Origin: a virus
Length of the DNA: 20,991 nt
IMG/VR virus record: IMGVR_UViG_3300032579_000084
Location: 1-20,991 of that record
Reading direction: 5' to 3' (one strand)
In this document: positions 15,793-17,644 of the stretch, piece by piece
How positions within the stretch are numbered: the first letter of the stretch is position 1
Layout: the number at the start of each line of letters is the position of its first letter
Notes under the pieces: model-generated
Told to the model about the DNA's origin: nothing
The model's input: the letters and a program-made list of their open reading frames with translations, nothing else
Database searches by the model: none
Made by a program: the position numbers and the translations under genes

Positions 15793-16101
15793 CTATTTAA
15801 TTAAACGACCATACACATCTTCCTGCTTCCAGTAGCCCTTAGCGGCGTGCCAGTCACAGTATTGTTGATAAACACCGTCTTGCGTGTTTCTGATTAGCTC
15901 ATTAACCCAAGGCATAAGATTGCCACTAGAAACGCCATACACTTCTTGGGCAAACATAGCGAACGGCGGCAGTCCTGCTAACCTTGTCCAATCCACTTGT
16001 GGTGCGGATTTTGGTTTTATCTCGTCAGCGGGTGTGGTAAAGGCATTAAATCCTTGCACGCCTGCAATTTGCGCAGGCGGCTTTTCTGTTTGGGTGGTCA
16101 T
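15793..16101 (-). CDS. Hypothetical phage protein, 102 aa
   Basis: The start at ATG 16101 has a strong AAGGAG Shine-Dalgarno and sits in an ATGA overlap with the HNH gene stop. The first ~40 residues are Pro/Ala-rich and probably flexible (PAQIAGVQGFNAF). The rest is a compact Trp/Tyr-rich helical domain (VDWTRLAGLPPFAMFAQEVYG, then QDGVYQQYCDWHAAKGYWKQEDVYG). It contains a single cysteine and no transmembrane segment. It lies before the LamG protein, so a small structural, assembly or chaperone role is possible. The family is not recognised. The strong ribosome site suggests this gene was part of the original operon and the HNH gene was inserted in front of it. Confidence 0.75.
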   Translation of the reverse strand: MTTQTEKPPAQIAGVQGFNAFTTPADEIKPKSAPQVDWTRLAGLPPFAMFAQEVYGVSSGNLMPWVNELIRNTQDGVYQQYCDWHAAKGYWKQEDVYGRLIK

Positions 16102-16769
16102 GTAAGCTCCTTAATTTTTTGAGAAACTAAAGTTAATTCGTCTTTGGTGAGCGATGACAACATATCAATCACCTTATCAACCATACGGACGCCATGCGGG
16201 TCTTTTTTGCTTGTACCTACGCCAGTCCATAATTCTAGGTTTTCAGGGCGGTTATCTTGTCGGTTGCCATTTTTATGATGGACGCGCTCGTGACGCTCTA
16301 GGGGTCTGCCAAGAATACTTGCCATGACAAGCCTATGCTCAAGTACCTTTTTGCCGTCTTTGCGTATCACCAAATATCCGCTACTACTAACCGTTTTATC
16401 GCCAATCACTCTATGCTCTAAAGTGATTTCGGGCTTTTTCATTCCTTCTGCTCTTGCTTTATTGGAACAAGTTTTAGAACAGTATGCTTGAGCCTTGCCG
16501 TGAGGTCTTTGAAATTCAGTTTTACAATAAGCACAAATTACTGTTTTATCCTTGCTTATGCCTTTGTTTTTACAAGCGACTGAACAATACTTCTGCTGTG
16601 CATACTTTGCTTTAAACTCATTGCCACAACATTCACACAATTTGTTTTTATTCCTTGTTGTTGAATACCAACATTCTTTAGAACAATAGGTTTGCTCAAC
16701 TCTTTTAGGTCTGAAAACAACATTGCAGTTTTTACAAGCCACATCTGGCAAGTGTCTTAAAGCAGTCAT
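16098..16769 (-). CDS. Zinc-finger HNH homing-type endonuclease, 223 aa
   Basis: The N-terminal ~110 residues hold four treble-clef-like zinc modules, each a C-x2-C followed ~12-15 residues later by a YCS-x2-C pair (CKNCNVVFRPKRVEQTYCSKEC; CECCGNEF...YCSVAC; CAYCKTEF...YCSKTC and related). The C-terminal half carries an HNH_3-type core at residues ~145-185: EHRLVMASILGRPL, then ERVHHKNGNRQDNRPENLELW. The catalytic His pair, the Asn-rich loop and the N-L-E-L-W ending are intact. Such enzymes nick or cut DNA at intron- or gene-free alleles. The gene lies just downstream of a group I intron-split gene but outside the intron, and has its own promoter (16802-16832) and a weak AAGAG ribosome site. 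It overlaps the next gene by ATGA. This is a mobile gene that looks intact. Confidence 0.9.
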   Translation of the reverse strand: MTALRHLPDVACKNCNVVFRPKRVEQTYCSKECWYSTTRNKNKLCECCGNEFKAKYAQQKYCSVACKNKGISKDKTVICAYCKTEFQRPHGKAQAYCSKTCSNKARAEGMKKPEITLEHRVIGDKTVSSSGYLVIRKDGKKVLEHRLVMASILGRPLERHERVHHKNGNRQDNRPENLELWTGVGTSKKDPHGVRMVDKVIDMLSSLTKDELTLVSQKIKELT

Positions 16770-16801: not shown

Positions 16802-16832
16802 ATTATAGCATAGCAACATGGGAATATGACAA
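16802..16832 (-). promoter_or_regulatory. Sigma70-type promoter for the HNH gene
   Basis: On the minus strand a perfect TATAAT (16807..16802) is preceded by TGC, giving an extended -10 (TGCTATAAT). A TTGTCA -35 candidate lies 19 bp upstream (16832..16827). The -10 is 32 bp before the HNH start codon. The 19-bp spacer is long, but the extended -10 compensates. No comparable promoter was seen before other genes in this window. Confidence 0.6.
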
Positions 16833-16865
16833 ATAACTTACGCTAATTTTATAACGTAAGTTATT
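16832..16865 (-). terminator. Inverted repeat just after exon 2, possible terminator
   Basis: An 11-bp perfect inverted repeat (AATAACTTACG / CGTAAGTTATT) with a 12-nt AT-rich loop lies 9 bp past the stop of the intron-split gene. On the minus strand it is followed by TGTCATATT, not a clean T-run, so termination may be weak; it could equally stabilise the 3' end of the spliced mRNA. It ends where the HNH promoter begins. Confidence 0.45.
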
Positions 16866-16874
16866 GATTTTAAA

Positions 16875-17644
16875 CTAAACTTTGAAAATCTTGTTAGTTC
16901 CGTTGTCCCAAGTAACAATAATCATTATCATTCGCAAGTAGTCGCTAATTACTTACCGCCCTTTCGGACTGCTTATGCTTTCACATAAGATTAGACTATA
17001 TCTTCACCTCACATTGTGAGGGCTTTGCACTTCCACTCGCTTGAGTGTACGCCTTGCGGCTAGTCGTTGAAGTTTCACCTGTACGGTGCTTACCTGCTGA
17101 TTGCCCAATCCTTTATCTTTTCAAACATTCACGCTTACGCTTTCGGGTTACGTTGTAGTGGTAAAGGCTCTAAGGGTGTTCCAGCAATTCACAAAGTTTT
17201 CGGTGACCATATTGTTAATCACCGCCATTCGGAGTGATTGGTCAATTAAGCTAGTTGATAGCTTGTGTTCCGAATAGATTTACACATCGCTGTGTAAAGG
17301 CTCGCCAATAAGCCAGTCGCGGTATCAATCCAAGCAATAAGCGGGCTTGTGCTTTCTGTACCCGTATCTTTATAGATGACAATTGCCTCAATACTTGCAC
17401 CGCTTACCGAGGTAAAAGTACAGTCTGCAGCGTCAGCTGCGCCGCCTGCGGTTGATTTTGCGGTAAGCGTTACGGGTGCAGTGACGCGGGCGGATGATGA
17501 AATGTCAGACAGGAACTTATGTGTTGCAGTCTGCACAGTGTAGTTGCCTGTATCGACCAAAATACATTTCATTGTATCGGTCTGCCAGTTGATTTGCGCT
17601 TCCAAGAGCATTTGGCGCGCGTTGTCAAACAATGTATTAGCCAT
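16875..17644 (-). CDS. Phage structural protein gene split by a group I intron (spliced product ~130 aa)
   Basis: Exon 1 is 17644..17310 (111 codons plus 2 bases), starting MANTLFDNAR with GAGG 8 nt upstream of ATG. Exon 2 is 16932..16875 (58 nt). Joining TT|A gives a continuous frame that ends VTWDNGTNKIFKV and TAG. Exon 1 has the recognisable plan of a small phage virion protein: MKCILVDTG near residue 25, a FLSDI segment near 44, Ser/Thr/Ala-rich strands, AIVIYKDTGT near 88, and SPLIAWIDTATG near 100. In that family the chain continues a few residues to a W-(D/N)-x-G-x-x-(K/R)-I-F-(K/R)-(L/V) ending, exactly what exon 2 supplies. Without splicing, translation runs into the intron and stops at 17246 after ~20 unrelated residues. 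The role in the virion is not known; it follows the head adaptor gene. Confidence 0.88.
16933..17309 (-). ncRNA. Group I intron (IA-like), ~377 nt, no internal ORF
   Basis: All hallmarks can be read on the minus strand. P1: exon 1 end GGCUU (17314..17310) pairs with GAGCC (17303..17299), placing a U-G wobble at the 5' splice site. P2: TTTACACA-GCGA-TGTGTAAA (17298..17279), a perfect 8-bp stem with a GNRA loop. P3: CTTTGTGA (17196..17189) with GTGCAAAG (17030..17023). P4: TGCTG (17186..17182) with CAGCA (17099..17095), inside the P and Q elements. R element: TTCAACGACTA (17071..17061). S element: GAAGATATAGTC (17005..16994). P7 is GACTA/TAGTC. Extra stems P7.1 (17060..17051) and P7.2 (17047..17034) point to subgroup IA, as in the T4 td intron. 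P8 (17021..17007) and P9 (16989..16972) are perfect hairpins. The terminal G is best placed at 16933, which restores the frame; 16945 is a less likely in-frame alternative. Confidence 0.93.

What the first reader, a model, noticed from the sequence alone, without database searches (positions are those of the whole stretch)
16875..17644. Group I intron splits a phage structural gene and hides its true C-terminus
The frame 17644..17246 looks complete, but its last ~20 residues are intron read-through. The minus strand from 17309 carries a full group I core: a U-G wobble P1, P2 with GNRA loop, P3, P4, P7 (TTCAACGACTA with GAAGATATAGTC), P7.1, P7.2, P8 and P9. A 58-nt exon 2 restores the family-typical WDNG-x-NKIF end exactly in frame (TT|A). 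Automated annotation would give a wrong C-terminus and miss exon 2. Unspliced RNA would make an alternative ~132-aa protein, so splicing could also act as a switch.
Basis: partly seen in the sequence, partly recalled or inferred. Interest (0 to 1): 0.92.

Follow-up and report, generated by a model that had tools for sequence, protein, structure and literature searches.

The report
Core-less mini-intron beside phage ribozyme intron
A phage structural gene is cut not by one self-splicing intron, as first read, but by an ordinary 295-nt group I intron plus a tiny 67-nt insert that has a group I intron's splice-site parts but no catalytic core, which suggests that one ribozyme removes both pieces.

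Summary
The group I intron is real (Rfam RF00028, 75 bits, E 1e-17), but its boundaries and exon 2 were misread. Intron-less relatives end TGLPITPNGGDIIVTWDNGTNKIF.

The best model has three exons on the minus strand:
- exon 1, 17644-17310
- a 67-nt insert, 17309-17243
- a 25-nt exon, 17242-17218
- a 295-nt group I intron, 17217-16923
- a 48-nt last exon, 16922-16875

Joined, they give exactly 135 aa, the family length. A scan of every G as a possible intron end puts the predicted 3' splice site first (once tied) for each guide sequence, in the window and in two related contigs. Changes between the window and its relative L034 are compensatory in P10 and in a helix joining the insert to the middle exon. 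All 12 differences from L034 in the two short exons are synonymous.

The insert has P1, a GNRA-capped P2, P10 and a terminal G, but no P3-P9. The neighbouring intron has the core but lacks the P2 that nearly all its relatives carry. I infer that one core removes both pieces in turn. No splicing was shown. Four loci carry the insert, one of them chimeric.

The parts
17310..17644 (-). Exon 1 (335 nt, 111 codons + TT)
   Evidence: 80% protein identity to tail genes of Shewanella and Pseudoalteromonas phages; phrog_644
17243..17309 (-). 67-nt core-less mini group I intron (P1, GNRA-capped P2, P10, terminal G)
   Evidence: Best P10 of 88 candidate 3' sites; hairpins; same element, 49 nt, in L034, L049, L089
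17299..17303 (-). 3' strand of the insert's P1 (GAGCC), pairs with exon GGCTT 17314-17310, U.G at the cut
17305..17309 (-). Guide extension AUUGG, P10 with CCAAU 17241-17237
17279..17298 (-). P2 hairpin UUUACACA-GCGA-UGUGUAAA with A-GNRA-U cap
17270..17277 (-). Insert strand of helix PM (CUAUUCGG), pairs with middle exon CCGAAUGG 17232-17225
   Evidence: Two double compensatory changes against L034
17218..17242 (-). 25-nt middle exon, A CCA ATC ACT CCG AAT GGC GGT GAT (PITPNGGD)
   Evidence: Matches intron-less relatives; its 3 differences from L034 are all synonymous
16923..17217 (-). 295-nt catalytic group I intron without P2
   Evidence: Rfam hit; core covariation; P1 and 7-bp P10, compensatory in L034; same site as L122
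16875..16922 (-). Last exon, 48 nt, IIVTWDNGTNKIFKV*
   Evidence: Spliced product is 135 aa like its relatives
16098..16769 (-). Free-standing HNH endonuclease gene, possible homing partner
   Evidence: Pfam HNH_3, PHROG HNH families; relatives lie next to the same gene

Best explanation
The gene has three exons and two group I-type introns served by one ribozyme core. The 295-nt intron (17217-16923) is an ordinary phage group I ribozyme. The 67-nt insert upstream is a core-less mini group I intron. It brings its own internal guide sequence: P1 sets its 5' splice site, P10 its 3' splice site. It also brings the GNRA-capped P2 that the big intron lacks, and it is held to the middle exon by helix PM. 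Most likely the P1-P2 of the mini-intron first docks on the neighbouring core, which cuts after ACTGGCTT and joins exon 1 to the 25-nt exon. The second P1 then docks on the same core, which removes the big intron and itself. Shown from sequence: exon identity, both pairs of splice sites with P1 and P10, compensatory changes, absence of a core in the mini-insert. Inferred: that splicing happens, its order, and that the neighbour's core does it.
For: Removing both pieces gives 135 aa identical in layout to intron-less relatives, in three loci. For the insert's guide the predicted 3' site is the best of 88, 102 and 101 candidates; for the big intron's guide it is the best of 70 and 85 and ties for best of 84. 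P10 of the big intron and helix PM show compensatory changes between window and L034. Middle and last exon differ from L034 by 12 changes, all synonymous. Core P3-P9 covaries in six introns. The insert's hairpin carries the A-GNRA-U cap found on P2 of six of eight distant relatives, and these P2-bearing relatives include L122 at the same site, while the window, L034 and L049 introns lack P2. In the window the insert's L2 loop matches the neighbour's P8 by the rule that nine conventional introns obey.
Against: No RNA evidence. The L2-P8 match fails in L034 and L049. Only four loci, one of them (L089) chimeric after the insert; three share an identical insert, so compensatory change rests on two insert types. 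The PM helix alone is reached by 3% and 8% of shuffled tails. A 3' splice site upstream of the core that uses it has no natural precedent that I know of.
Confidence: 0.6

Rival explanations
1. The mini-intron is spliced by its own minimal ribozyme, as reported for the 67-nt SSU rRNA intron of the fungus Phialophora americana, without help from the neighbouring core.
For: Same size class; P1, P10 and a helix between intron middle and 3' exon (PM) are shared with the Phialophora introns (PMC3160393).
Against: No P7-like G site was recognised; the end is G, not U; the insert's P2 is the very part missing from the neighbour, which points to a shared core.
Confidence: 0.13
2. The insert is not removed in most transcripts: it ends the protein early (132 aa here, 126 aa in L034/L049), as a decayed end or a regulated alternative C-terminus.
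For: Exon 1 reads into the insert and meets an in-frame stop near its end in all loci.
Against: Middle and last exon are under strict coding constraint, and the splice-site helices covary, which would not last if they were never joined. The tail peptide is not conserved.
Confidence: 0.12
3. One reading: one 377-nt intron from 17309 to 16933 giving a 130-aa protein with MIM in place of PITPNGGD.
For: In frame in the window, L034 and L049; Rfam aligns the insert's P1-P2 with the core.
Against: Loses eight conserved residues; at most 2 Watson-Crick P10 pairs at that site in the window; L122 shows the 3' end ten bases later; a second, covarying P1/P10 set is left unexplained.
Confidence: 0.05
4. 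The ribosome skips the insert (translational bypassing, as in T4 gene 60) and only the big intron is spliced.
For: Similar gap size (49-67 nt), a stem-loop at the gap start, and an in-frame stop in the gap.
Against: No matching take-off and landing codons: the triplet before CCA is UGA, not UUA. It does not explain the P1/P10 guide or the terminal G.
Confidence: 0.03

Closest known systems
Conventional group I introns in the same gene (L122 at the same site; L101 and L023 after TWD; L025/L026 a group I-like insert a few bases on)
   Same: Same gene, same ribozyme family, HNH gene nearby in L122 and L025/L026
   Different: They carry their own P2 and have no mini-insert; L025/L026 gave no Rfam hit
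Small group I introns (63-75 nt) of Phialophora SSU rDNA (PMC3160393)
   Same: Size, P1 with U.G, P10, helix between intron middle and 3' exon
   Different: Those are in fungal rRNA, end in U, are reported to contain P7 and splice alone; here a core lies next door
Engineered group I spliceozyme (PMC4094466)
   Same: One group I core removes an intron that has no core
   Different: Artificial, acts in trans, guide sits on the ribozyme; here the guide sits in the mini-intron, in cis
Phage Twort orf142 introns 2 and 3 (described in PMC10136302)
   Same: Tiny exon (23 nt) between two phage group I introns
   Different: There both introns are group I ribozymes (subgroup IA2) and the exon can be skipped; here skipping would break the frame

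Membership tests
Group I intron (295-nt element, 17217-16923) | Conserved core P3-P9, match to RF00028 | tested here: met
   75.1 bits; covariation in six introns
Group I intron (295-nt element, 17217-16923) | P1 with U.G at the 5' site, P10, terminal G | tested here: met
Group I intron (295-nt element, 17217-16923) | Guanosine-dependent self-splicing | not testable with these tools
   Needs in vitro transcription
Group I intron (67-nt insert, 17309-17243) | P1 with U.G, P10, terminal G | tested here: met
Group I intron (67-nt insert, 17309-17243) | Catalytic core P3-P7-P8 | tested here: not met
   Only three short hairpins fit in 67 nt; L089, which holds the insert without the core, gives no RF00028 match at E 0.01
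Phialophora-type small group I intron | P1, P10 and PM helices | tested here: met
Phialophora-type small group I intron | P7 with G site | tested here: inconclusive
   None recognised by eye in the fold
Phialophora-type small group I intron | Terminal U | tested here: not met
   Ends in G in all copies
Collaborative homing (ORF-less intron + free-standing endonuclease) | HNH gene next to an intron without ORF | tested here: met
Collaborative homing (ORF-less intron + free-standing endonuclease) | Endonuclease cuts the intron-less insertion site | not testable with these tools
   Needs a cleavage assay

The most novel reading that the evidence does not exclude
A natural non-autonomous group I intron: a 49-67-nt mini-intron that keeps only its guide, P2 and splice sites and is excised by the catalytic core of the intron next door, so that one ribozyme splices two introns of one mRNA in succession, a natural spliceozyme in cis.
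Probability: 0.5. Interest if true: 0.85.

Novelty: new variant of a known kind. Interest (0 to 1): 0.72.

Why it matters
If one group I core can serve a neighbouring core-less intron, it is a living intermediate between self-splicing introns and a shared splicing machine, a step proposed (for group II introns) on the way to the spliceosome and, as far as I found, seen for group I only in engineered 'spliceozymes'. It is small, lies in a phage gene, and can be tested in a test tube. It also shows that automated annotation, and even a correct Rfam hit, can give the wrong exons.

Tried and rejected
Ribosome bypassing: rejected because take-off and landing triplets do not match in the needed frame.
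Skipping of the 25-nt exon (17310 joined to 16922): out of frame.
Assembly artefact: unlikely, because the arrangement recurs in other contigs; L089 is itself chimeric just after GGCGGTG and was used only for the insert.
L121: judged a chance match of the pattern.
No further mini-insert copies were found by four pattern scans of viral contigs, a scan for the intron's 5' region, a blastn of the phage collection, or a DNA search of 391 genomes.
L2-P8 contact as proof of docking: consistent in the window, not in L034/L049, so left as suggestive only.

Full report
Observation. Rfam finds one group I intron in the window, 16972-17319 on the minus strand, 75.1 bits against a cut-off of 50. The interrupted gene belongs to phrog_644, and its exon 1 product is 80% identical to proteins annotated 'minor tail subunit' of Shewanella phage Y11 and Pseudoalteromonas phage Y7. 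The window is a 20,991-base virus record whose major head protein resembles those phages and several Pseudomonas phages.

Of the relatives found in viral contigs, most end ...DTATGLPITPNGGDIIVTWDNGTNKIFKV at 135 aa. Joining 17310 to 16932 gives TGL-MIM-IIVTWDNG, without PITPNGGD. That peptide is encoded inside the supposed intron, in the sequence CCAATCACTCCGAATGGCGGTGAT at 17241-17218 in the window, and at the same place in two other contigs, L034 and L049.

Catalytic intron. Directly after GGTGAT lies UAACAAUAUGGUCACC. It forms a second P1 (GGUGAU with GUCACC, U.G at the cut) and folds with z -4.7. Its guide extension AACAAUA pairs over 7 bp with exon UAUUGUU just after ...AATG|ATTATTGTT (16923|16922). 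In a scan of every G as intron end, this site ranks first in the window (70 candidates) and L034 (85), and ties for first in L049 (84 candidates, 5 pairs). In L034 both P10 strands differ from the window's and still pair. L122, whose neighbouring HNH protein is 69% identical to the window's, has an ordinary intron at the same site. The core P3-P9 is supported by compensatory change: 38 of 73 predicted pairs in an alignment of six introns. So the catalytic intron is 17217-16923, 295 nt.

Mini-insert. What remains between exon 1 and PITPNGGD is 67 nt in the window and an identical 49 nt in L034, L049 and L089. It starts with P1 (GGCUU/GAGCC, U.G) and a hairpin with a GCGA loop, and ends in G. 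Its guide extension AUUGG pairs with CCAAU just after TTAATTG|A, the best of 88 candidate sites in the window and of 102 and 101 in L034 and L049. Removing it gives TT|A CCA, that is Leu-Pro, in frame. With both pieces removed, the window, L034 and L049 all encode 135 aa matching the family.

Coupling of the insert to the middle exon. The tail of the insert pairs with the middle exon: CUAUUCGG x CCGAAUGG in the window, CCGUUUGG x CCAAACGG in L034, with two double compensatory changes and one one-sided change. The middle exon's three differences are all synonymous, and two of them are matched by changes in the insert. The last exon's nine differences from L034 are synonymous too. The middle exon is therefore most likely read as protein, and it also carries strands of three helices: P10, PM and the second P1. 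The PM helix in either locus alone would be modest evidence (shuffled tails reach it in 3% and 8% of trials).

Origin of the insert. Six of eight distant phage relatives of this ribozyme have a P2 hairpin with an A-GNRA-U cap between P1 and P3; the other two were unclear. The insert's hairpin has the same cap (ACACAGCGAUGUGU). L122, L101 and L023 also have P2, but the catalytic introns of the window, L034 and L049 have none. The P1-P2 part and the core thus lie on opposite sides of a coding exon. In nine conventional introns the L2 loop and P8 base pairs follow one rule (GNGA with CU:AG, GNAA with CC:GG; the rule is recalled from Costa and Michel's work, and it holds 9/9 here). The window's insert loop and its neighbour's P8 obey it, but those of L034 and L049 do not. 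The insert is identical in L034, L049 and L089 while their exon 1 sequences are only 73-81% identical, so it probably moves between phages, perhaps together with the intron by homing.

Mechanism. The insert lacks every core helix. My best explanation is that it docks its P1-P2 on the neighbouring core, is spliced first, and the same core then removes itself. This is inference; no RNA was seen.

Known context. Small degenerate group I introns exist in fungal rDNA. Engineered group I ribozymes remove core-less introns in trans (PMC4094466). Twort orf142 has a 23-nt exon between two group I introns. Nine literature searches listed no paper whose title or abstract describes a natural group I intron dependent on a neighbour's core; only a few papers were opened and the library holds open-licence papers only, so this absence is weak.

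Mobility. A free-standing HNH gene lies 105 nt downstream of the last exon (16098-16769). Related HNH genes occur next to the same gene in phages with an intron (L122; L025/L026, read by eye) and without one (L123, L124, L125), while L034 and L049 have a different HNH-like gene there. This fits collaborative homing (PMC3984707), untested.

Noticed in passing
window 16098-16769 (-); L122, L123, L124, L125, L025, L034, L049: The spot just downstream of this tail gene is repeatedly occupied by free-standing HNH genes, of at least two kinds, with or without an intron in the gene.
   Followed up: partly
L023, L101, L025/L026, L122, window: The last 20 codons of this gene family are a hot spot for group I-type insertions: at least four different insertion points (after TGL, GGD, GGDI and TWD).
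   Followed up: partly
window 16832-16865: An A/T-rich inverted repeat (AATAACTTACG...CGTAAGTTATT) between the last exon and the HNH gene looks like a terminator.
   Followed up: no
L089 (IMGVR_UViG_3300033926_000002): The contig carries the 49-nt insert but runs, just after GGCGGTG, into the reverse complement of an upstream head gene: probably an assembly chimera.
   Followed up: partly
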